Source: Catenuloplanes niger
Lineage (GTDB): Bacteria > Actinomycetota > Actinomycetes > Mycobacteriales > Micromonosporaceae
DNA length: 64,000 bases
NCBI RefSeq assembly: GCF_031458255.1
Contig: NZ_JAVDYC010000001.1
Span: forward strand, 2,675,001-2,739,000
Direction of reading: 5' to 3'
Shown: positions 7,858-44,229 of the stretch, piece after piece
Numbering within the stretch: position 1 is the stretch's first letter
How the letters are laid out: the number at the start of each line of letters is the position of its first letter
Position numbers and translations under genes: made by a program
Notes under the pieces: model-generated
Databases searched by the model: none
Seen by the model: the letters and a program-made list of their open reading frames with translations, nothing else
Told to the model about the DNA's origin: nothing

Positions 7858-9408
7858 TTACGGCAGCGACCGCAGGAACGGCGCGTGCGAGTTCCGGAAC
7901 TCCCAGGAGTAGAAGCGGTCCCAGTTGATGGACCAGGTCATCAGCCCGCGGAAGTTCGGGTTCGTCCCGCTGCGCGGCGTGTAGGACCCGCACGAGACGC
8001 CCTTGACCAGGCAGTTGACCGCATCCTGGATCGCGGCCGGCGGCACGTATCCGTTGCCGGCGCTGACCGACGACGGCGCGCCGAACGCGACCTGGTCCTC
8101 GCGCAGCGCCGGGAACACGTTCGCCGGGTTGCCCGCGACCGGGAAGCCGGCCAGCAGCATGTCGGTCATCGCGATGTGGAAGTCCGCGCCGCCCATCGTG
8201 TGGTAGGCGCCGTCCAGGCCGACGATCGGGCCGGAGTTGTAGTCCTGCACGTGCAGCACCGTGAGGTCGTTGCGCAGGGCGTGGATCACCGGGAGGTACG
8301 CGCCGGAGCGCGGGTCCTGGCCGCCCCACGGGCCGGAGCCGTAGTACTGGTGGCCGAGCTGCACGAAGAACGTCTCCGGGGCCATGGTGAGCACGAAGTT
8401 CGCGCCATACCGGGCCTTGAGCGCCCGCACCGCGGAGATCAGGTTGACGATCGCGGGCGTGGTCGGGTTCCGGAAGTCGGTGTCGCCGGTGTTGAGCGAC
8501 AGCGAGTGGCCCTCGAAGTCGATGTCCAGCCCGTCCAGGCCGTACCGGTCGATGATCGCGGCGACCGAGGTGACGAACGCGTCACGGGCCGCGGTCGTGG
8601 TCAGCTGCACCTGGCCGTTCTGGCCGCCGATCGAGATCAGCACCTTCTTGCCCTGGGCGCGCTTGGCCTGGATCGCGGCCTTGAACTCGGCCTCGGACTC
8701 CACGTTCGGGCACTCCGCGACCGGGCAGAGGCTGAACCGGATGTCGCCGGAGGTGGCCGTGGTCGGCTCGCCGAAGGCGAGGTTGATGATGTCCCACTCC
8801 GCCGGTACGTCGGCCATCCGCAGATATCCGGACCCGTTCAGGAAGCTCGAGTGCAGATATCCGATCAGCGCGTGTTTGGGCAGAGTGCCGGGATTCGGGT
8901 TCGACGGCGAGGGAGACGGCGAGGCGGACGGCGTCGGGCTGGATGTCGGCCGCGGGCTGGACGTGGCGCTCGGGGTCGGCGAGGCCGACGTCGGCCCGGT
9001 GGTCGGTGTCGCCCCGCCGCAGGAGGCGCCGTTGAGCGTGCAGTTCACCGGCGTGCCCGCGCCGTTGGCCAGGAAGCCGAACGACACCGACGCCCCCGGC
9101 GCCACGGTGCCGTTCCACGACCGGTTCGTGAACGTGAAGCGCTGTCCGGAGGAGGTGAGCAGCGCGTCCCAGTAGCTGCCCATGGTGCTGCCGGCCGGCA
9201 GGTCGAACGCCACGGACCAGGACGTGATCGCCGCCCCGGTCCCGTTGGTGATCGTGTACTTGCCCTCCCAGCCGGATCCCCAGTCCGAGGTCTTGGCGAA
9301 CGTCGCGGTGACCGCCGCGGCCGATGCGGGGAGCGCGAACAGCACGGCCGACGCGGCGGCCGCGCACAGGGCGACGAGGGTCAGGGCGATAGATCGAGAC
9401 CGTTTCAC
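7858..9408 (-). CDS. Secreted chitinase, CBM2 plus GH18
   Basis: A signal peptide (KRSRS then a hydrophobic stretch ending ALPASAAA) is followed by a family 2 carbohydrate-binding module (about residues 28-130), a Ser/Thr/Pro linker (about 130-178) and a glycoside hydrolase 18 barrel. The catalytic signature DGLDIDFEG is intact, with D292, D295, D297 and the proton donor E299. It should hydrolyse chitin outside the cell. GTG 9408 is chosen because GGAGG lies 6 nt upstream; the in-frame ATG at 9423 would place that ribosome site inside the gene. It is divergent from the GGDEF protein gene. Confidence 0.95.
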   Translation of the reverse strand: MKRSRSIALTLVALCAAAASAVLFALPASAAAVTATFAKTSDWGSGWEGKYTITNGTGAAITSWSVAFDLPAGSTMGSYWDALLTSSGQRFTFTNRSWNGTVAPGASVSFGFLANGAGTPVNCTLNGASCGGATPTTGPTSASPTPSATSSPRPTSSPTPSASPSPSPSNPNPGTLPKHALIGYLHSSFLNGSGYLRMADVPAEWDIINLAFGEPTTATSGDIRFSLCPVAECPNVESEAEFKAAIQAKRAQGKKVLISIGGQNGQVQLTTTAARDAFVTSVAAIIDRYGLDGLDIDFEGHSLSLNTGDTDFRNPTTPAIVNLISAVRALKARYGANFVLTMAPETFFVQLGHQYYGSGPWGGQDPRSGAYLPVIHALRNDLTVLHVQDYNSGPIVGLDGAYHTMGGADFHIAMTDMLLAGFPVAGNPANVFPALREDQVAFGAPSSVSAGNGYVPPAAIQDAVNCLVKGVSCGSYTPRSGTNPNFRGLMTWSINWDRFYSWEFRNSHAPFLRSLP

Positions 9409-9461
9409 GGCAGCCTCCTCCATCGGCGGCGGTGCAGGTCACCGCGGCCGTTGGAGAATTA

Positions 9462-9568: not shown

Positions 9569-11572
9569 GTGAACGGGCTGACGATCGGGGTGCTGTCGCC
9601 GTTCGTCGGCGGCGACTACTACGGTGGCCTGCTCGCCGGCGTGACCGAGGCCGCCGCCGCGCGCGGCGGCCGGGTGCTGGCCGTGCAGACGCTCGCGCCC
9701 GGCGCGCGGCGGGCCGACTCCGAGGGCGTCCCGGACTGGGACGCGCCGGTCGGCTGGGCACACGTGGACGCGTTCGTCGTGGTGATCGGCGCGGTCGACG
9801 ACGGCCATCTGGCCCGGCTGCACGCCACCGGCAAACCGGTGGTGCTGATCAGCCACCGGTCCACGGCCCTGCCGCTGCACGCGGTGCTGCCGGACAACCG
9901 CTCGGGGGTACGGGACGCGGTCGCGCACCTGATCGCGCACGGGCACACCCGGATCGCGTTCGCCGGCGCGCTGGACGTGCCGGACATCCGCGAGCGGCAC
10001 GCCGGCTACCTCGCCGCGCTCGCCGACCACGACCTGCCCGAACTGCTCTTCGCCGCGGCGGACAACCACGAGCGTGGCGGGCGGGTCGCGGCGGCGGAGA
10101 TGCTGGCGGCCGGGCTGCCGTGCACGGCCGTGGTCTGCGGCACCGACCGGAACGCGATCGGTGTGCTGGAGACGCTGACCGCGGCCGGGCACCGGGTGCC
10201 GGAGGCGCAGGCGGTGATCGGCTTCGACGACATCCCGGGCGCGCTCTACACCGAGCCCACGCTGGCCAGCGTGGCGCAGCCGCTGCGCCGGATCGGCGCG
10301 GCCGCGGTCGCGGCGCTGGACCGCGGCGACGGCGTCACGTTCGTGCCGACGGTCTTCGTGCCGCGGGAGAGCTGCGGCTGTGACCGGCCCGCGCCGCGGC
10401 CGCCCGACACCGCGCTCGCCGCCCGGCTCGCCGACCCGGCCGTGCCGGAGGCCGCGCTCGCCGCCGAGCTGCGCGGCTGGACGCTCGCGGAGCTGGACGA
10501 GGCGCTGCACGGCCTGGTGACCGAGCAGCGGGCCCGCCGGATCCTGCTGCGGGTGGCGCAGGACCGGGCGCGCGCGCAGTTCGGCGACATCCGCTACCTG
10601 CAGGACACGCTGAACGCGCAGTACCAGCTCGGCACGGAGCTGCTGCGCACGGACGAGCAGGACCCGCGCGCGCTCGGCTGGCTGCGCCGCCTCCCGGTCA
10701 CGGCCGGCTGCCTCGGCCTCTGGCACGGCAGCCCGCGCCGCGATCCCCGCCCGGAGCAGCACCGCGAGAAACGCCGGGGCGCGCTGGAGATCTCCGGCGC
10801 GTTCCACTGCGGGACCACGGGCGGCCGGGTCGACGTCGCGGACTTCCCACCGGCCGGGCTGTTCGACGCGGCGCGGCCGGACACCGGTGAGATCGTCTTC
10901 GTGATCTCGGTGCGCAGCAGCGCGCACGACTGGGGACTGCTGGCCACGGTCGCGCGCATCCAGGACAAGACGCCGCCGGGCCGGGAGCCGATGAACCAGT
11001 CCGGCGCGCTGCTCGCGGTCGCGCTGGACCAGGAGTTCATGCTGCGCTCACTGCGCGAGCAGGAGGAACGGCTGCGCCGGACGGCGCTCTACGACCACCT
11101 CACCGGGCTGCCCAACCGCGGCCTGTTCCTGGACCGGCTGCGGCAGGCGGTGGACCGGGCGCGACGCGAGCCGGCGTACGCGTTCGCGGTGCTCTTCCTG
11201 GACCTGGACGGCTTCAAGGCGGTGAACGACACGCTCGGGCACGCGGCCGGCGATCAGCTGCTGGTGCAGACGGCCGGGCGGATCACGGCGCTGCTGCGCG
11301 AGACGGACACGGCCGCGCGGTTCGGCGGCGACGAGTTCCTGGTGCTGCTGGACGACGTCGACGGGCCGAACAGCGCGGCCGCGGTCGCGGAACGGGCCCG
11401 GGCCGCGCTGGCCCGCCCGTTCGAGCTGGCCGAGGGGACGGCCCGGGTCTCCGCGAGCATCGGCAGCGCGCTCTCCACGGACGGGCACCCGACCGCGGAG
11501 GCGCTGCTGCGCGTGGCCGACGCGGCCATGTACCACGCGAAGTCCGTCCGGCGGGCCGGCATCCGCCGCTGA
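9569..11572 (+). CDS. Diguanylate cyclase with LacI/periplasmic-binding-protein-type sensor domain
   Basis: Residues 1-270 resemble the effector-binding domain of LacI-family regulators (LTIGVLSPFVGGDYYGGLLAGV at the start, GFDDIPGALYTEPTLASVAQP near 216-236, ending VPRESCGCDRP), but there is no HTH, signal peptide or membrane helix. A middle region (about 280-490) precedes a GGDEF domain with G586-G587-D588-E589-F590. The inhibitory-site RETD (577-580) lies five residues before it, so product inhibition is likely retained. It should make c-di-GMP in response to a cytoplasmic ligand, probably a sugar by family analogy. GTG and ATG alternatives upstream are absent. It is divergent from the chitinase. 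Confidence 0.88.
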   Translation: MNGLTIGVLSPFVGGDYYGGLLAGVTEAAAARGGRVLAVQTLAPGARRADSEGVPDWDAPVGWAHVDAFVVVIGAVDDGHLARLHATGKPVVLISHRSTALPLHAVLPDNRSGVRDAVAHLIAHGHTRIAFAGALDVPDIRERHAGYLAALADHDLPELLFAAADNHERGGRVAAAEMLAAGLPCTAVVCGTDRNAIGVLETLTAAGHRVPEAQAVIGFDDIPGALYTEPTLASVAQPLRRIGAAAVAALDRGDGVTFVPTVFVPRESCGCDRPAPRPPDTALAARLADPAVPEAALAAELRGWTLAELDEALHGLVTEQRARRILLRVAQDRARAQFGDIRYLQDTLNAQYQLGTELLRTDEQDPRALGWLRRLPVTAGCLGLWHGSPRRDPRPEQHREKRRGALEISGAFHCGTTGGRVDVADFPPAGLFDAARPDTGEIVFVISVRSSAHDWGLLATVARIQDKTPPGREPMNQSGALLAVALDQEFMLRSLREQEERLRRTALYDHLTGLPNRGLFLDRLRQAVDRARREPAYAFAVLFLDLDGFKAVNDTLGHAAGDQLLVQTAGRITALLRETDTAARFGGDEFLVLLDDVDGPNSAAAVAERARAALARPFELAEGTARVSASIGSALSTDGHPTAEALLRVADAAMYHAKSVRRAGIRR

Positions 11573-13833: not shown

Positions 13834-14289
13834 CTAGGCGCTCGGGTAGCGGAGGAAGTGGGCGTAGTCCGCGCTGGTGCCGCCGCGCCGCTGCCGGGGT
13901 ATCCGGGGCGCCGGCCGCGCGGCGGGCTCACCGATCGAGATCGCGAGGACCGCGGGATCGTGCGTGCGCGCGGCCCGGTCGGTGGCCGGGGCGGTGAAGC
14001 CGGCGCAGGAGTAGAGCACGCCGCGGTCCGCGCCCACGTCCGCCAGCTTCGCCACGAAGTGGTCCACGCACGAGATCCCGACCGGCCGGTGCTGCTGGCG
14101 GCACTCGACCGCGACCGTGACCGGCAGGCCGGCCACCGTCCCGTGGATCATCACCTGCACGTGCCGCGGCGCACCGCTGAGCCGGCCGTGGTGCCGCCGG
14201 TTGTAGACCACCCGGGCGTGGTCGAACGCGGCCAGCAGCCGGGTCAGCGACCGCTCGTACCGCTGGAGCTGAGTGTCGGTGGGGGGCAT
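13834..14289 (-). CDS. Mrr-like restriction-endonuclease-fold protein, degenerate active site (paralogue 1)
   Basis: The 151-residue protein has the core VTVAVECRQQHRPVGISCVDHFVAKLADVGADRGVLYSCAGFT. This matches the Mrr/PD-(D/E)XK pattern, in which an Asp is followed by E-x-K and later by a G-V-L-x-S-x-x-G-F-T strand. Here the usual Asp is Gln45 and the lysine is Arg64, with Glu62 retained. It is therefore probably not an active nuclease. It is the last of three tandem paralogues on this strand. Confidence 0.7.
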   Translation of the reverse strand: MPPTDTQLQRYERSLTRLLAAFDHARVVYNRRHHGRLSGAPRHVQVMIHGTVAGLPVTVAVECRQQHRPVGISCVDHFVAKLADVGADRGVLYSCAGFTAPATDRAARTHDPAVLAISIGEPAARPAPRIPRQRRGGTSADYAHFLRYPSA

Positions 14290-14357
14290 CCGTCGACGCT
14301 ATGAACGTCATTCGTACCGTTGTCGCCCCGGTTGTCCGTCATAGCCCGATCGTGCGG

Positions 14358-14879
14358 TCAGGGCGTCCACAGGTCCGCGGTGCCGCCGAGACGCAGGAAG
14401 AGCGCGAAGTCGGCCTGGTCGACGTCGGTGGAGTCGTGCGGCGGCAGGCCGTCGCGCACCATCCGGCCGTCACCCAGCGTGATGGCCATCACGGGTGGGC
14501 TCTGGGCGTGCGCGGCGCGGGCCCGGGCCCGGTCGGTGAAGCCGGTGCAGGAGTAGAGCACGCCGCGGTCCGCGCCGATGTCGAGCAGCTTGCCGACGAA
14601 GCGGTCGACCGCGCCGACGTCCACCGGCCGGCGCCGGCGCTGCACGCACTCGATCGCGGCGGTCACCCGCACGCCCAGCACGGGACCCTGCACCAGGACG
14701 TCGACGCGGCGCAGCGATCGGCTGAGCCGGCCCTCGACGCGACGGTTGTAACCGACCTCGACGGGTGGTTCGAAGCCACCGAGCAGCCGGCTGATCGAGG
14801 AGTCGAAGAGCGTCAGGCGACGGAGCGTGTCGGGCTCTTCGTCCGGGTCCGGCGGCAGTTCCGCGTCCGCTGGGTGCAC
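14358..14879 (-). CDS. Mrr-like restriction-endonuclease-fold protein, degenerate active site (paralogue 2)
   Basis: The core LRRVDVLVQG...VTAAIECVQRRRRPVDVGAVDRFVGKLLDIGADRGVLYSCTGFT aligns along its length with its two neighbours. Asp60 and Glu77 of the PD-(D/E)XK site are present, but the lysine is Val79. The start is uncertain: GTG 14879 gives 173 residues, and an upstream TTG at 14921 would add 14. It lies 68 bp from paralogue 1 and 82 bp from paralogue 3, so co-transcription is possible. Confidence 0.7.
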   Translation of the reverse strand: MHPADAELPPDPDEEPDTLRRLTLFDSSISRLLGGFEPPVEVGYNRRVEGRLSRSLRRVDVLVQGPVLGVRVTAAIECVQRRRRPVDVGAVDRFVGKLLDIGADRGVLYSCTGFTDRARARAAHAQSPPVMAITLGDGRMVRDGLPPHDSTDVDQADFALFLRLGGTADLWTP

Positions 14880-14961
14880 AACTTTGAGCGTACGGGCGAA
14901 TGGGTGTGGCTCATCGCCCAAATTGTGCGTCTTTGTCGTTAAATCCGGAGAAAAGTTGTCA

Positions 14962-15462
14962 TCAGTCCCCGACGGCGGCGCAGCGCCAGAGGAACATCGC
15001 GAAGTCCGCCTCCGTGATCTCGTCCACGCCGAACGGCGGCAGCGGATCCGCCGCCCGCCGCGGTCGCGGGATCCGTGGCCCGCCGCCCAGCGACACCGCC
15101 ATCACCGCGGGCCAGCGCGCCGCCGCGGCCCGCGCGCGGGCACACCGGGTGAAACCGGACCGCGAGTAGAGCACGCCGCGGTCCGCGTCCACGTCCAGCA
15201 GCTTGCCGATGAACCGCTCGACCACGCCCAGGTCCGCCGCCCGCCGGCTCTGCCGGCACTCCACCGCCACCGTCACGCCCGCGCCGAACACCCGGCCGCG
15301 GACCAGCAGATCGATCTGGCGTGGTGATCCGCTGAGCACGCCCGGCACCCGCCCGTTCACCGCCACCTCGGCGTTGCCGTCGAAGCTGGAGAGAAGCCGC
15401 GTGATGGACAACTCATACCGCTGAAGCGGCGAGACGCGGGGAAAGAGGTCGAAGACGGTCAC
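14962..15462 (-). CDS. Mrr-like restriction-endonuclease-fold protein (paralogue 3)
   Basis: The 166-residue protein starts at GTG 15462. It carries RQIDLLVRG and VTVAVECRQSRRAADLGVVERFIGKLLD, then RGVLYSRSGFT. Asp51 and Glu68 are kept and the catalytic lysine is Arg70, so it is the least degraded of the three. The N-terminal helix (SPLQRYELSITRLLSSFD) is shared with paralogue 1 (LQRYERSLTRLLAAFD), which shows they arose by tandem duplication. Confidence 0.72.
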   Translation of the reverse strand: MTVFDLFPRVSPLQRYELSITRLLSSFDGNAEVAVNGRVPGVLSGSPRQIDLLVRGRVFGAGVTVAVECRQSRRAADLGVVERFIGKLLDVDADRGVLYSRSGFTRCARARAAAARWPAVMAVSLGGGPRIPRPRRAADPLPPFGVDEITEADFAMFLWRCAAVGD

Positions 15463-15550
15463 CCTACGAAACTATGAGCGGGCGTTGGGTGAGCGTCGCC
15501 CAGACTGTGCGACAACGCCCACACGACGCACCCGTAACCCACCGGCCGGG

Positions 15551-16390
15551 TTACAGCGGCACGAAGAACGGTGAGGTGAGCGCCGGGTGCCGGGCCTGGA
15601 GCCGGTCGTAGGCGCGGCACAGGTCGTCGCGGCTGAGCCAGACCGGCGGCGTGGTGTCCAGCCGCTTCAGCCGTTCACCGACCGCGAGCGCGGCCAGGTC
15701 CTCGGCGAGACGGTCCAGCGCGACGCCGCAGTCGAAGCCGTGCGACCCGATCTGGACGCGTTCGAGCAGGTGACGGCCCTCGGGGAGCTCGACCCACGCC
15801 CAGCCCTCCGCCACGCCGTCCGGCATGGTGACGTGCAGTCCCCGGATGATCGGGTCGGCCAGGTCACGGCCGACGTAGGCGTCCACCGCGGCCGCGCGAG
15901 CCAGCGCGCTCAAATCGTTCACGAAGCCGTCGCGGCCGTCGGGGAGCCGGCCGACGATGTCGCGGAACCCGGGGCCGGGCGGCTCCACCGCGTCGTCGAA
16001 CGCGGTGGCGTCCCGGAACGCGCGCGCGTCCAGCAGGTACTCGACGGTCCGGCGGGCCTGCGTGGTGGCGCCGAGGATCGGCGAGACGACGCGCACCCAC
16101 TCCAGGCCGACCGCGCCGCAGACGGCGGCGAGCATCCGGTCGAGCCGCTCGTCCACGCCGGCCGGGTCGGCGAACTGGGCCGCGAAGACCGGCAGCCGGG
16201 TGTCCGGGTCGAGCACGACGAAGTCGCAGCGGGTGCGCAGCGCGGTGTTCCACTGGTTCGGGCTGACGCCCTCCGGCCGGCGCGCGACCAGCTGGCTGAG
16301 CCTTCGGTCAGGCTGGACGACCCAGCGGCCGCGCGCGAAGAGCTGCTCCTCCGCGGTGACGACCGGGCGCAGCGGTGACGGGGTGCTCAT
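15551..16390 (-). CDS. DUF2726-like protein with altered nuclease motif
   Basis: The 279-residue protein contains RCDFVVLDPDTRLPVFAAQFAD followed by a helix and GLEWVRVVS. This resembles the DUF2726 pattern (vDFvl-pv-IElD-G-pllRi), a PD-(D/E)XK-type fold. Asp56 is retained, but the expected Glu and second acidic residue align with Gln72 and Ala74. The assignment is by eye and moderate. It lies 88 bp upstream of paralogue 3 on the same strand and is divergent from lon. A GTAACCC/GGGTTAC stem at 15534-15554 spans its stop codon. Confidence 0.5.
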   Translation of the reverse strand: MSTPSPLRPVVTAEEQLFARGRWVVQPDRRLSQLVARRPEGVSPNQWNTALRTRCDFVVLDPDTRLPVFAAQFADPAGVDERLDRMLAAVCGAVGLEWVRVVSPILGATTQARRTVEYLLDARAFRDATAFDDAVEPPGPGFRDIVGRLPDGRDGFVNDLSALARAAAVDAYVGRDLADPIIRGLHVTMPDGVAEGWAWVELPEGRHLLERVQIGSHGFDCGVALDRLAEDLAALAVGERLKRLDTTPPVWLSRDDLCRAYDRLQARHPALTSPFFVPL

Positions 16391-39837: not shown

Positions 39838-42800
39838 ATGGAACGGGCCACGGCCACCGACCTCGAGGCGGGCCAGGCTTCGGCCGGGCAGGCGTTCGAG
39901 GCGGGCCAGGCTTTCCCGGCGGGGCAGACGTTCGCGGCGGGGCAGACGTTCGCGGCGGACCTGGCTTCCGCGGCGGGGAACGACGCGGTACGGGGCCTTC
40001 CGGCCCCGGCCGGCGCGGTCCCGGCGGGCGCGATGCCCGCGGACGCGGTGCCGGCGCAGTCGGCACCGATGTGGGAGGTGCCGGATCGGCCCGGCGAGCC
40101 GCGGGCCGCGATCTTCGGCGGGCCGGTTTCCCCACCCGCGCCGCCACCGCCCGGGACGCCGACATCCGTGGCGAAGCCGGCCCCGATCTCGGGCGGGACG
40201 CCGCCCGCCACGGCATCGTTCGCGACGCCGATGTCCGTGGCGGGGCCGGCCCCGGCGCAGTCGGCCGCGGTCGTGGGCGGGATGCCGCCGGCTACGGCAT
40301 CGTTCGCGACGCCGTCGTCCCCGGCATCGGCCGGGAGCCGGTCGGCGACGCCCGGCGCGGCATCGGCAGGGACGCGGTCGACATCGCCCGGCGCGGCATC
40401 GGCAGGGACGCGGTCGGCGATGCCGGACGCGGCGTCGGCGGATGCCGAGACGGCCGAGTTCGACCCGGAGGCGGATCTGGAGGACCGGTTCCCCGGGGCG
40501 CCGCGCACGAACCGGGACGCCTGGCGCGGGATCGAGACGCCGGGCAGCGTGTCCACCCTGACCAAGCCCGCGGGCCTCGGCACGGCACCGCCGCGGGAGA
40601 ACGAACCGGCCTTCATCGACCTCGGACCGCGAACCGGCTCCGACGAGCCACGCGGCCTACGGGCCATGCTGGCCGGCCTGGTCGGCCGCGCCCGATCCGC
40701 GAAGACCCCCAAAGCGGCCAAGCCGCCCAAGCATCCGCGTAACCGGGAGCGGCCGGGCACCGACGACCAGCCCTGGTCCGCGCAACCCCTCGACGGTACG
40801 GGCCGAACCTGGCCCGCGGCAGCCACACCGCACGACACGACGCCCGTCCCGCACGGCACCGCACCGGCGTCGCCGAACGGCACGACGTCGCCGGACGGCA
40901 CGACGTCACCGGACGGCACGACGTCACCGGACGGCACGACGTCACCGGACGGCGTGGTGCCGGGCCATCGCACCGGCACCCCGGCGGCACCGCACGGCGA
41001 CGTCCCCGGGGGTCCGCGCGGCGGCGTCCCGGCGGGCACGCGCGACGTCGGCGGCGCGGATCAGCCCGGTGCCGCACCGGTCGCCCGCCCGGCGGACCGG
41101 AAGCAGCCGTGGCCGTCGCCGATCCCCCAGGACGGCCTGTCACTGCTGCCACCGGCCGACCTGCCGGCGGCCTGGCCGGCACGGGACGTCCCGGCGACCG
41201 ACGGCTCCACCGGGCCCAGGACCGGCCCCATTGCCGATGCGGAGCCGACGCACACCGGCGCCTTCGGCGGGTCCGCGGGCGTTGACGCCTTCGGCGACAC
41301 TGCCGGAGCCGGCACCCTCGGCCGGACCGCGCGAATCGGCGCCTTCGACGACACCGCGGGGACCGGCGACCTCGGCGGTACCGCAGGGACCGGCGCCCTC
41401 GGCGGCACCGCAGGGGCCAACTCCGTCGGCGGGTTCACCGGAGCCGGTGCCTTCGACGACACCACGGGGACCGGCGCCTTCGGGGGATCCGCGGGAACCG
41501 GCGGGGCCGCCGGGGCCGGCACCGTCGGCGGTCCGGGAGGCGCGCCGCACGGGACCGCGGACAGCGGCGCGTCGGGCGGGTTGCCGGCCGGTGGTATCGC
41601 GGCGGACAACCCCGAGAGCAGCGGCGGCACGCGCAGTTGGGGCAGCCCGGCCTCCTGGCCGTCCACGCCGACACCGCACGCGGGCACTCCCGGCGTGCCC
41701 GCTCCCGCGCCGGTCAGCTGGCCCGACGCCGGTTCCCCGGAGCCGGCCTCGCCGGATTCGGGATTCTTCGCGCAGGCGGCTTCGGACTCGTCGCGGACGG
41801 CGCCGTTCGATCCGGCATCGCGGGCCGAGGTGAAGGCCGGCGACAGCGTCGGGGCACGCCCGCCGGCGGTCGCCGGCACGCCGGGGCCGGTCGCACCGGC
41901 GTCCGGGACCGACTCGATCAGGCCGGCGTGGAACACCGCCGGGTCGGCGGAGGCGGCGTTCGTGCCGGTGGCCGCCGCGGATCCCGGGCCGACCTCCGAA
42001 TGGTTCACGCACGTCGAGCCGCGTCTGTCGGATCCGGCCGCGCCGACGACCCCCGGCCGGGCGGAGCCGCCCACCTGGGCGGTCTCGTCCACCGCCGCGC
42101 ACAACCGGATCGAGGGCACGCCTCCCGACCCGGCGGACCGGCAACCCGAGCCGGCGGACCCGGCCGTCGCGCGCCCACGGGCGGAGACGCCGAGCCAGAA
42201 CGGCTGGGCGGAGCGCCCACCGGTGGTGGACCTCTGGGCCGACGCGGACGGCACGGCATGGACCACGACCCCGACGGCTCAACACCCCACCACGTCGCCG
42301 AGTTCCACCACGTCACCGCAGACCGACGCATCTCCACAGCACACCGCGTCACCGCAGTCCGGCGGGCCCGGGGCATCGCCGCAGTCCGGCGGGTCCGAGG
42401 CATCGCCGCAGTCCGGCACGACCAGCATGTCACCGCAGTCCGGCACGTTCGGCGCGTCACCGCAGTTCGGCGGGTCCGGGGCATCGCCGCAGGCCGGCGG
42501 ATCCGGCACGTCACCGCAGTCCGGCGGGTCCAACGCATCGGCGCAGGCCGACGGGTCCGGCACGTCGGCGCAGTCGAGCGCACCTCCGCATACCGGCAGA
42601 TCACCGCAGACCAGCGCGTCTCCGTATGCCGACGCATCTCAGCAGCCCGGCGGTGCACCGCGGGCAGGCACGTCGCCGCAGTTCAGCCCGGAGCAGCCGG
42701 CGGCCTCGGCGCACCGGTCCGGCCCGCCGCAGTCGGCCGCGTCCGCGCAGGCCGGGGATTCGTGGCTCGTCCCGTCACGGTCGGAGAACGCACCGGACCC

Positions 42801-44229
42801 GGCGGCGCTGTCGGGCCCGGCGGCACCACCGGACCCGGCGACACCACACGACCCGGCCGCGTCGCCGGCGGCCGCGCCCGGCTGGGACGAGCCCGCGCCA
42901 CGCGACGATCCGTACGCGATGTATCGCCGCCCCGCCACCGGGGCGGACGAGCCGGCCTGGGACACGACGCCCTCCTGGGCCTCCCCGTCCCCTTCCCCGG
43001 TCGACCGCGGCACCCGCGAGCAGCCACCGCTGCGCAGCCCGGACGCGGCCGACCCGGGGTGGTCCGGCCGCGCCGACCGGGTCACGGAGGAGTCCGGCAC
43101 GCACGGCGACCTGGTGGACGGCACCCTGACCACCGGTCGCGACCAGGTCCCGGGTCGCGACCGGTCCCAGCCCGACGAGCCGCCGGCCTGGTCGGCCGTA
43201 CCGGCACCGCCGCCCCACCTGGCCACGCCGCCGTCACCCGGCCCGGATCGCGCGGCACCGTCCGGACGCCGGTTCGCCGACCGCCGCGCCGCGTCCGCCG
43301 ACCACCGCGCCGTCGAGCGCGGGCCGGGCGAGCGCAGTCCGGCCGAGCGCAGTCCGGCGGAGCGCAGTCCGGCGGAGCGCGGGCCGGGCGAGCGCGGTCC
43401 CGGCGGACGGCGGTCCGGCCGGCGGGACGCGCGGCCGCGGCACGGCGCCGAGAGCGACGTGCGCGTGCTCAGCACGTACACCGGGGACGAGAGCGAGAAG
43501 CCGCGGCGCCGGGGCGTCGGCATCATGGTGGCCGCCGTCGTGGTGGCGGTGGCGGTCGCGGCCGGCGGGCTGGCTGCGCTGCGCGGCGTGCCGGGGCTGA
43601 ACCTGGCCGCCGCCGGCGACGGCCCGCACGCGATCTCCGCACCGCTGGACGGCCGGGACGCGCTCGTCTTCGACCTGGTCTCCGGCGTCACCTCGGTCAG
43701 CGTGACCAGCGACGACCTGGAGGGCGACCTCTACCGCATCTCGACGCCGCAGGATTCGAACGTGCGGCCGGAGGCGATCGACCAGGGCGACCGGCTGATG
43801 CTGCAGATGGCCGAGACCGGTGCGCGCGGCCCGAGCCTGGTGGAGGTGCGGCTGAGCTCGGAGGTGCGCTGGGACGTACGGCTGACCGGTGGCGCCACCG
43901 AGCACGTGGTCGACTTCAGCGAGGGGCGGCTGTCCGGGTTCGACGTGCTGGGCGGCGCTACGCGGCTGGAGCTGGACCTGCCCGCGCCGGAGAAGTCCGT
44001 ACGCCTGAAGGTCAGTTCCGGTATCAGTCAGTTCGTGCTGCGGACGCCCGCGGACGTACCGTCGCGGCTCCGGTTCGGCGCGGGCGCGGACAGTGTCACG
44101 CTTCTGGGTGACGCGCGCGGGCGGGTCGCGCCGAACTCGCGTTTCACGCCGAAGGCCTGGGAGGGCGCGGACGACCGGTACGACATCGCCATCACCGCGG
44201 GCGTCGGCACGTTCACGCTGGAACAGTGA
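39838..44229 (+). CDS. Giant low-complexity single-pass membrane protein with C-terminal beta domain
   Basis: The 1463-residue frame starts at ATG 39838, 4-5 nt after GGAGGG. Residues 1-1220 are rich in Ala, Gly, Pro, Ser and Thr with almost no predicted fold and several in-frame repeat blocks (TTSPDG units, 9-residue ASPQSGGSG units, ERSPA units). A basic KPRRRG stretch precedes one membrane helix (about 1226-1250, IMVAAVVVAVAVAAGGLAAL). The last 210 residues form a beta-rich outer domain resembling DUF4097/adhesin-like folds (LTGGATEHVVDF, LGGATRLELDL, VSSGISQFVL). The long part should be cytoplasmic. Role unknown; the architecture recalls surface sensors with a disordered inner tail. Confidence 0.75.
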   Translation: MERATATDLEAGQASAGQAFEAGQAFPAGQTFAAGQTFAADLASAAGNDAVRGLPAPAGAVPAGAMPADAVPAQSAPMWEVPDRPGEPRAAIFGGPVSPPAPPPPGTPTSVAKPAPISGGTPPATASFATPMSVAGPAPAQSAAVVGGMPPATASFATPSSPASAGSRSATPGAASAGTRSTSPGAASAGTRSAMPDAASADAETAEFDPEADLEDRFPGAPRTNRDAWRGIETPGSVSTLTKPAGLGTAPPRENEPAFIDLGPRTGSDEPRGLRAMLAGLVGRARSAKTPKAAKPPKHPRNRERPGTDDQPWSAQPLDGTGRTWPAAATPHDTTPVPHGTAPASPNGTTSPDGTTSPDGTTSPDGTTSPDGVVPGHRTGTPAAPHGDVPGGPRGGVPAGTRDVGGADQPGAAPVARPADRKQPWPSPIPQDGLSLLPPADLPAAWPARDVPATDGSTGPRTGPIADAEPTHTGAFGGSAGVDAFGDTAGAGTLGRTARIGAFDDTAGTGDLGGTAGTGALGGTAGANSVGGFTGAGAFDDTTGTGAFGGSAGTGGAAGAGTVGGPGGAPHGTADSGASGGLPAGGIAADNPESSGGTRSWGSPASWPSTPTPHAGTPGVPAPAPVSWPDAGSPEPASPDSGFFAQAASDSSRTAPFDPASRAEVKAGDSVGARPPAVAGTPGPVAPASGTDSIRPAWNTAGSAEAAFVPVAAADPGPTSEWFTHVEPRLSDPAAPTTPGRAEPPTWAVSSTAAHNRIEGTPPDPADRQPEPADPAVARPRAETPSQNGWAERPPVVDLWADADGTAWTTTPTAQHPTTSPSSTTSPQTDASPQHTASPQSGGPGASPQSGGSEASPQSGTTSMSPQSGTFGASPQFGGSGASPQAGGSGTSPQSGGSNASAQADGSGTSAQSSAPPHTGRSPQTSASPYADASQQPGGAPRAGTSPQFSPEQPAASAHRSGPPQSAASAQAGDSWLVPSRSENAPDPAALSGPAAPPDPATPHDPAASPAAAPGWDEPAPRDDPYAMYRRPATGADEPAWDTTPSWASPSPSPVDRGTREQPPLRSPDAADPGWSGRADRVTEESGTHGDLVDGTLTTGRDQVPGRDRSQPDEPPAWSAVPAPPPHLATPPSPGPDRAAPSGRRFADRRAASADHRAVERGPGERSPAERSPAERSPAERGPGERGPGGRRSGRRDARPRHGAESDVRVLSTYTGDESEKPRRRGVGIMVAAVVVAVAVAAGGLAALRGVPGLNLAAAGDGPHAISAPLDGRDALVFDLVSGVTSVSVTSDDLEGDLYRISTPQDSNVRPEAIDQGDRLMLQMAETGARGPSLVEVRLSSEVRWDVRLTGGATEHVVDFSEGRLSGFDVLGGATRLELDLPAPEKSVRLKVSSGISQFVLRTPADVPSRLRFGAGADSVTLLGDARGRVAPNSRFTPKAWEGADDRYDIAITAGVGTFTLEQ
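40881..40952 (+). repeat. 18-bp tandem repeat x4 inside the giant gene
   Basis: Four adjacent copies of CACGACGTCACCGGACGG (the first with one change) encode TTSPDG four times in frame. Confidence 0.9.
42346..42588 (+). repeat. 27-bp degenerate tandem repeat x9 inside the giant gene
   Basis: Nine in-frame 9-residue units of the form (A/T)SPQSGGSG follow one another, with Ser-Pro-Gln conserved in the first seven. Sequence drift between units shows an older expansion than the 18-bp array. Confidence 0.82.
43330..43374 (+). repeat. 15-bp tandem repeat x3 inside the giant gene
   Basis: Three copies of GAGCGCAGTCCGGCG encode ERSPA units in a basic, Glu-rich segment about 70 residues before the membrane helix. 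Confidence 0.8.

What the first reader, a model, noticed from the sequence alone, without database searches (positions are those of the whole stretch)
13834..16390. Tandem cluster of three degenerate Mrr-like nuclease paralogues plus a DUF2726-like protein
Three adjacent minus-strand genes share the same PD-(D/E)XK-type core, but each has lost the catalytic lysine (Arg64, Val79, Arg70), and paralogue 1 has also lost the Asp (Gln45). A fourth upstream gene resembles DUF2726 with Gln/Ala at the acidic positions. Retained folds with altered catalytic residues in a tandem array suggest DNA-binding or decoy roles, possibly in defence or repair, rather than simple decay: the strand motif GVLYSxxGFT is kept in all three.
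Basis: partly seen in the sequence, partly recalled or inferred. Interest (0 to 1): 0.72.

Follow-up and report, generated by a model that had tools for sequence, protein, structure and literature searches.

The report
Family of dead nucleases sharing promoters
A soil bacterium carries a small family of proteins built like DNA-cutting enzymes that seem to have lost the cutting machinery yet are kept intact by evolution, and nearly every one of their genes is preceded by the same promoter-like signal, found before no other gene in the five related genomes searched.

Summary
P1, P2 and P3 (13834-15462, minus strand) are paralogues of the Mrr_cat domain (PF04471); the catalytic lysine is R, V and R, and P1 also has Q for the Asp. 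A fourth copy lies elsewhere. All five genomes of the genus (Catenuloplanes, by contig identity of one) carry P1-P3, with 20 family members in all. None has both Asp and Lys; the Lys site drifts (R, V, L, C, D, H, one K); the beta-3 Glu is invariant. dN/dS is 0.14-0.35 (two control genes 0.13-0.28), so this is not decay. A confident model has the PD-(D/E)XK fold. The two closest outside relatives keep D...E-C-K, but 5 of 19 outside relatives read have E-C-R.

New here: a shared box, CG[CG]ACA-N4-GGGCGA[CT], about 20 bp before TANNNT and a leaderless-type start. Box plus -10 occurs 18 times in the five genomes, always before a family member (18 of 20); reversed-pattern control 0. The DUF2726-like gene is separate, present in half the bacterial family; within the genus its Gln is seen only here. 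Best reading: a co-regulated set of non-cleaving, probably DNA-binding proteins. Autoregulation is possible but unproven.

The parts
13834..14289 (-). P1: dead Mrr_cat paralogue (Asp site Q45, Lys site R64), 151 aa
14296..14301 (-). -10-like element TAGCGT of P1, 6 nt before the ATG (leaderless geometry)
14322..14338 (-). box CGGACAACCGGGGCGAC of P1
14358..14879 (-). P2: dead Mrr_cat paralogue (Lys site V), start placed at GTG 14879 because the TTG at 14921 lies inside the box
14887..14892 (-). -10-like element TACGCT of P2, 7 nt before GTG
14913..14929 (-). box CGCACAATTTGGGCGAT of P2
14962..15462 (-). P3: dead Mrr_cat paralogue (Lys site R70), 166 aa; AlphaFold2 model
15469..15474 (-). -10-like element TAGTTT of P3, 6 nt before GTG
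15495..15511 (-). box CGCACAGTCTGGGCGAC of P3
15551..16390 (-). P4: DUF2726-like gene, neighbour only, not part of the set (no box)

Best explanation
P1-P3, with a fourth copy elsewhere in the genome, are a family of single-domain Mrr-type PD-(D/E)XK proteins found, in the genomes searched, only in this genus. None of the 20 members has the full nuclease motif; the duplications that made the family precede the split of the five genomes, and the proteins have been under purifying selection since (shown). Nearly every copy has its own leaderless-type promoter with one common upstream box that, together with a -10, occurs in front of no other gene in these genomes (shown as sequence; promoter activity inferred). 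Most likely mechanism (inferred): one regulator reads the box and switches the copies on or off together, and the proteins then bind nucleic acid without cutting it, P2 and P3 perhaps with a metal held by the kept Asp/Glu pair.
For: Fold: 9-sequence AlphaFold2 model of P3, pLDDT 84.0, pTM 0.80, order of elements a-b-b-b-a-b-a-b. Nearest solved structures are AF1548 1y88 (Foldseek E 5.1e-6; Z 12.0, rmsd 3.8, 115 aligned) and the modification-dependent nucleases AspBHI and MspJI. Catalytic loss: the Lys site is R in 5 of 5 P1; V in 4 and L in 1 of 5 P2; R in 4 and C in 1 of 5 P3; R, R, D, K in the 4 fourth copies; H in the fifth copy of G097. The Asp site is Q in P1 and the fifth copy, E in the fourth copies, D in P2 and P3. 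The beta-3 Glu is kept in 20 of 20. Selection: NG86 dN/dS P1 0.24-0.35, P2 0.14-0.29, P3 0.15-0.21 against Lon 0.13-0.17 and a neighbouring glycosyltransferase 0.18-0.28. Age: each of P1, P2, P3 and Q4 is one clade with starred support. Promoters: box plus -10 matches 18 times in five genomes, control 0, all 18 before family members. Bases around the box agree only 0.27-0.34 between paralogues of one genome, while the -10 positions T, A and T, which were not used to find the box, agree 1.00, 0.89 and 0.89.
Against: No binding, expression or cleavage data exist. K-to-R alone does not prove loss of activity: 5 of 19 outside relatives read have E-C-R at this place, so Arg recurs there and may be tolerated; PMC1189080 (passages) lists active sites with Gln, Asn or acidic residues for the Lys and migrated Lys residues. 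A helix lysine (Nocardia K85) is kept in 19 of 20 and could in principle help, though the intact Nocardia homologue has it as well. One fourth copy (G097) has K with Glu at the Asp site. The 100% agreement of 10 box columns is forced by the search pattern used to align them; the genome scan is the real test of specificity. The same pattern marks one conserved site in another genus. The nucleic-acid-binding step rests on fold alone.
Confidence: 0.57

Rival explanations
1. Autoregulation: the proteins themselves bind the box, so the family is a set of nuclease-derived transcription factors that control their own and each other's promoters.
For: Box plus -10 is private to this family in five genomes and stands out from diverged flanks. 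A regulator of many genes would leave other sites. The fold is that of DNA-binding nucleases.
Against: No binding data. The same pattern (box plus TANNNT) stands at one look-alike site in 61 of 67 genomes of another genus of the bacterial family (g4), before an alpha/beta-hydrolase gene in the loci read, and no g4 genome had a family match at E <= 1e-5. If that is the same element, the binder is some other, older protein; if it is coincidence, the argument falls. A private box is also what a dedicated separate regulator would give.
Confidence: 0.2
2. Still nucleases: the Arg, or the kept helix lysine, does the work of the lost lysine, at least in P2 and P3, which keep the Asp and the Glu.
For: Asp and Glu are kept in 10 of 10 P2 and P3 proteins; the helix Lys is kept in 19 of 20. 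E-C-R is found in 5 of 19 outside relatives. Unusual active sites are on record (PMC1189080, passages).
Against: In P2 the position is V or L, and in P3 of G097 it is C, so a basic residue is not required; P1 has lost the Asp in all five genomes. The helix Lys is also present in the intact homologue.
Confidence: 0.15
3. Decoys or sensors in defence: dead copies bind an anti-restriction protein or modified phage DNA and protect or trigger an active nuclease elsewhere.
For: Inactive enzyme copies as decoys are proposed for conflict systems (PMC7159879, passages) and inactive REase domains occur in others (PMC10853773, passages). The genome has one canonical Mrr-type protein with D...Q-x-K at 914133.
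Against: Between the glycosyltransferase and lon the window has only P1-P4 as likely genes. Only weak PADLOC hits of the Mrr domain, no homologue found in phages or viral contigs. A P-loop-like gene lies between P4 and P3 in one of five genomes only (G098).
Confidence: 0.15
4. Plain decay: duplicated nuclease genes on the way out.
For: Motif residues vary between copies and strains; the fifth copy in G097 is very long-branched.
Against: No internal stop in the 20 matches (the one TAG listed for P1 is its own stop; none). dN/dS 0.14-0.35 for P1-P3, shared promoters.
Confidence: 0.03

Closest known systems
Mrr-type restriction endonuclease domain, Pfam PF04471 (Mrr_cat)
   Same: Sequence match above the curated cut-off, same fold
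   Different: Asp and/or Lys of the active site lost; stand-alone 150-190 aa domain without a DNA-reading partner domain; three to five copies per genome with a common promoter box
Stand-alone Mrr_cat protein of Nocardia exalbida (L007)
   Same: Closest relative found outside the genus; 39-46% identical to P1-P3 over 116-170 aligned residues; similar length and C-terminal part
   Different: Intact E...D...E-C-K site; no box in the stretch read upstream
Inactivated PD-(D/E)XK domains (COG1395 of archaea, NA-iREase1 PF22722, RPB5 of RNA polymerases)
   Same: Nuclease fold without the active site, kept for binding or structure (COG1395: PMC1189080 passages; RPB5 found as fold match; that RPB5 is a dead member is recalled)
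   Different: Those are domains of larger proteins or complexes (recalled for RPB5 and NA-iREase1); NA-iREase1 score is 11.5-12 bits against a cut-off of 27
SfsA of E. coli
   Same: PD-(D/E)XK domain in a DNA-binding protein linked to gene expression (PMC1189080 passages)
   Different: SfsA keeps a typical ID-EVK motif and has an OB-fold domain

Membership tests
Mrr_cat (PF04471) | Profile score above curated cut-off | tested here: met
   27.6, 29.7, 27.6 bits against 21; 20 of 21 rows of A2 (20 family members plus Nocardia) match at E <= 0.01
Active Mrr-type nuclease | D ... (E/Q)-x-K active site | tested here: not met
   0 of 20 family members have both D and K
PD-(D/E)XK fold | a-b-b-b-a-b core, similarity to solved members | tested here: met
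   P3 model
NA-iREase1 (PF22722) | Profile score above cut-off | tested here: not met
   11.5 and 12 bits against 27 for P2 and P3; no hit for P1
DUF2726 (PF10881), for P4 | Profile score above cut-off | tested here: inconclusive
   P4 21.1 bits against 24.7; 9 of 9 aligned relatives (P4 included) hit at E <= 0.01, best 1.2e-9; single-sequence model failed, pLDDT 39.8
Sequence-specific transcription regulator | Binds the box and changes transcription | not testable with these tools
   only box distribution was tested

The most novel reading that the evidence does not exclude
A restriction-nuclease domain has been turned, by losing its catalytic residues, into a stand-alone family of transcription factors that bind a 17-bp box in their own promoters and regulate each other: a closed, self-contained regulatory circuit made only of dead nucleases.
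Probability: 0.18. Interest if true: 0.75.

Novelty: new variant of a known kind. Interest (0 to 1): 0.5.

Why it matters
Dead nuclease domains are usually seen as parts of larger proteins (recalled). Here a whole stand-alone family appears to live on without catalysis, with a private, conserved promoter-like signal that makes the function testable: whatever reads the box, and whatever turns it on, tells what the proteins are for. If the proteins read it themselves, this is a route from nuclease to transcription factor.

Tried and rejected
Structure of P4: single-sequence AlphaFold2 gave pLDDT 39.8 and was not used. Solved relatives by sequence: none credible for P3 alone or for the profile A2. 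Viral and phage homologues: none; plasmids: 5 weak hits under 35% identity over 46-59% of P3. Lysine migration to the helix lysine was considered and set low, as that lysine is also in the intact homologue. The other matches outside the genus (L012-L016, one in each of 5 genomes) are more distant Mrr-type proteins, read; four of the five keep E-C-K or D-C-K and L016 has E-V-N; they were not counted as family. The G096 match L028 (read as L036, D-C-K intact) was likewise dropped from the count of 20. Of the 18 outside rows, 12 have K, 5 have R (L043, L047, L065, L066, L067) and 1 has N; with Nocardia that is 13, 5 and 1 of 19. Only 10 or 8 of the first-look candidates were scored per genome, so distant members may be missed, and searched samples (397 and 396 genomes) of larger groups. 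The alpha/beta-hydrolase gene of genus g4 has no relative at E <= 1e-40 in the five genomes of the window's genus. In relatives of it from five other genera no box with up to one mismatch was seen except one inside the gene of L136, so a common ancestral site could not be shown. dN/dS script stopped with an error after four gene sets; the rest was run with GT from 3 and Lon from 4 of 5 genomes, Lon cut by locus ends in some. The P2 set began at the upstream TTG (ATG in G098), so it includes 14 (21) codons or so that I now take as promoter. One search was an empty script.

Full report
What is there. The three genes at 13834-15462 are real and related: open frames with the expected codon-position G+C pattern, 50 and 53% identity of P2 and P3 to P1, and PF04471 Mrr_cat matches above the curated cut-off. 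The genome (9.74 Mb, one contig) holds a fourth copy, here Q4, at 4204655-4205122 and one further Mrr_cat protein, outside this family, at 914133 with a D...Q-x-K motif.

Distribution. Of 354 genomes of the bacterial family, ten had a profile match at E <= 1e-5: the five of the window's genus with four or five matches each, and five more with one weak match each. After dropping one intact Mrr-type protein of G096 (L028, read as L036), the family has 20 members: 4, 4, 3, 5 and 4 in G000, G095, G096, G097 and G098. P1-P3 stand in one array beside P4 and lon in G000, G095 and G096; in G098 one gene with a P-loop-like sequence is inserted between P4 and P3; in G097 the pieces are rearranged over about 16 kb. 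Samples of the order (397 genomes) and phylum (396 genomes) gave, outside the genus, 7 and 7 genomes with one match each at E <= 1e-8, one genome being in both; the best is G415 with an intact E-C-K.

Active site. In alignment A2 (21 rows) the Nocardia exalbida protein, the closest outside relative found, has E15, D49, E66 and K68. In the family the Lys site is R (P1, 5 of 5), V or L (P2, 4 and 1), R or C (P3, 4 and 1), R, R, D, K (Q4) and H (fifth copy of G097). The Asp site is Q in P1 and the fifth copy, D in P2 and P3, E in Q4. The first-helix acid is E, Q, D, H or R. The beta-3 Glu is kept in 20 of 20 and the residue after the Lys site is Gln in 19 of 20. No member has both Asp and Lys. 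So loss of the motif is a property of the genus, not of this strain, and the Lys site drifts in P2, P3 and Q4. Against over-reading this: of 19 outside relatives read (18 and Nocardia), 13 have K, 5 have R and 1 has N at this place, so an Arg there is not unique to this family and may not by itself abolish activity.

Fold. The P3 model from nine sequences (window plus L005-L007) has pLDDT 84.0 and pTM 0.80, with ten-residue blocks at 90-97 from residue 11 to 120. Foldseek ranks AF1548 (1y88), AspBHI and MspJI first; VIA-align gives 1y88 Z 12.0 (rmsd 3.8, 115 aligned), CRISPR ancillary nucleases Z 8-11, and RPB5 of RNA polymerases about Z 8-9. This supports a PD-(D/E)XK fold.

Selection and age. 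Pairwise NG86 dN/dS between orthologues is 0.24-0.35 (P1), 0.14-0.29 (P2), 0.15-0.21 (P3) and 0.17-0.43 (Q4); P4 0.10-0.35, Lon 0.13-0.17, the neighbouring glycosyltransferase 0.18-0.28. P1 is thus somewhat less constrained than the controls. P1, P2, P3 and Q4 are each one clade with starred support in a tree of 27 proteins, so the duplications precede the split of the five genomes; the order of the duplications and the place of the outgroups are not resolved.

Promoters. Reading upstream of every copy showed a common element: CG[CG]ACA-N4-GGGCGA[CT], then about 20 bases, then TANNNT, then 6 or 7 bases to the start codon. TANNNT 7-12 bases before the transcript start is the main -10 motif of Mycobacterium tuberculosis (PMC3898074, passages), so the geometry suggests leaderless messages (inference). 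It also moves the start of P2 to GTG 14879, as the TTG at 14921 lies inside the box. The pattern GSACANNNNGGGCGAY-N18-22-TANNNT occurs 18 times in the five genomes and its reversed control 0 times; by position all 18 stand before family members: 4 of 4, 4 of 4, 3 of 3, 4 of 5 and 3 of 4. The two misses are variants: Q4 of G098 has GGGCGGC, and the fifth copy of G097 has extra bases inside the box. The 17-base box without the -10 occurs 43 times in the five genomes (control 16); none of the 25 extra sites has a -10 in the allowed range. In 19 upstream regions aligned on the box (fifth copy left out), the 40 bases before the box agree between paralogues of one genome at 0.27-0.32 and the spacer at 0.34, while the -10 positions T, A and T, which were not used for the alignment, agree at 1.00, 0.89 and 0.89. 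The full agreement of 10 of the 17 box columns in that call is forced by the pattern that found them; what counts is that all 19 had it. The intact Nocardia gene has no box in the stretch read, though it too has a -10-like TAGATT six bases before its ATG.

A result against the private reading. In the whole bacterial family, 78 of 354 genomes have a match to box plus -10. Twelve of 282 genomes outside the window's genus and g4 have one each, a background level like the control. But 61 of 67 genomes of one other genus, g4, share one look-alike site. In 6 of the 8 loci of this type that I read (of 61) an alpha/beta-hydrolase gene was called right after it, and in the other two the following DNA is alike; a PAS-domain gene was called in 6 of the 8 (Pfam checked on one protein of each). 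No g4 genome had a match to the nuclease family at E <= 1e-5, and the five Catenuloplanes genomes have no close relative of that hydrolase. Either one conserved promoter of g4 matches by chance, or an older regulator reads both. The second would speak against autoregulation. I cannot tell.

The DUF2726-like gene. P4 has relatives in 181 of 354 genomes of the bacterial family, nearly always one. In 15 loci outside the genus (with up to about 1.5 kb of flank), lon lies beside it in one, and none encodes P1-P3. Its Glu site is E in the four other Catenuloplanes and Q here; in the 15 outside relatives it is E in 10, Q in 2, and A, T and K in one each. It has no box. It is a neighbour, not part of the set.

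Mechanism. Shown: family, fold, loss of the motif, selection, shared box. Inferred: the promoters work, one regulator reads the box, and the proteins bind nucleic acid without cutting. Autoregulation (0.18-0.2), remaining activity (0.15) and decoy or sensor roles (0.15) stay open.

Novelty. Inactive PD-(D/E)XK domains are known (PMC1189080, PMC7159879, PMC10853773: passages only). I found no paper on this family: the search 'Catenuloplanes' with 'restriction endonuclease' gave two papers, which by title and abstract start are about other matters, and a search for inactive Mrr-type regulators gave three, seen only as listings in that call. These cover open-licence PMC papers only.

Noticed in passing
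window 39838-44229 (+): Very large Ala/Pro/Gly/Ser/Thr-rich open frame (1463 aa) with no Pfam hit at E <= 1e-5, with repeats such as SPDGTT.
   Followed up: partly
window 9569-11572 (+): Fusion of a LacI-type sugar-binding sensor domain with a GGDEF diguanylate cyclase domain; similar genes lie near the array in related genomes.
   Followed up: no
L126-L129, L132-L135 (genus g4): Conserved promoter-like site GGACA-N4-GGGCGATGTG...TATGGT before an alpha/beta-hydrolase gene, in most followed by a PAS-domain gene (RsbQ/RsbP-like by recall), in 61 of 67 genomes; resembles the box of the dead nucleases.
   Followed up: partly
L033:2429-3748 (-): In G098 a gene with a P-loop-like sequence (GPRSVGKSTV) is inserted between P4 and P3, and splits the array from lon.
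   Followed up: no
L032:8328-8879 (-): Fifth, very diverged copy in C. japonicus (E-R-H in place of E-x-K) with a box carrying extra bases.
   Followed up: partly
L043, L047, L065, L066, L067: Distant Mrr-like proteins of other actinobacteria with E-C-R in place of E-C-K: Arg at this site recurs and may mark a separate, possibly still active, variant.
   Followed up: no
window 7858-9423 (-): Secreted-looking protein with a cellulose-binding CBM_2 and a glycosyl hydrolase family 18 (chitinase-type) domain.
   Followed up: no
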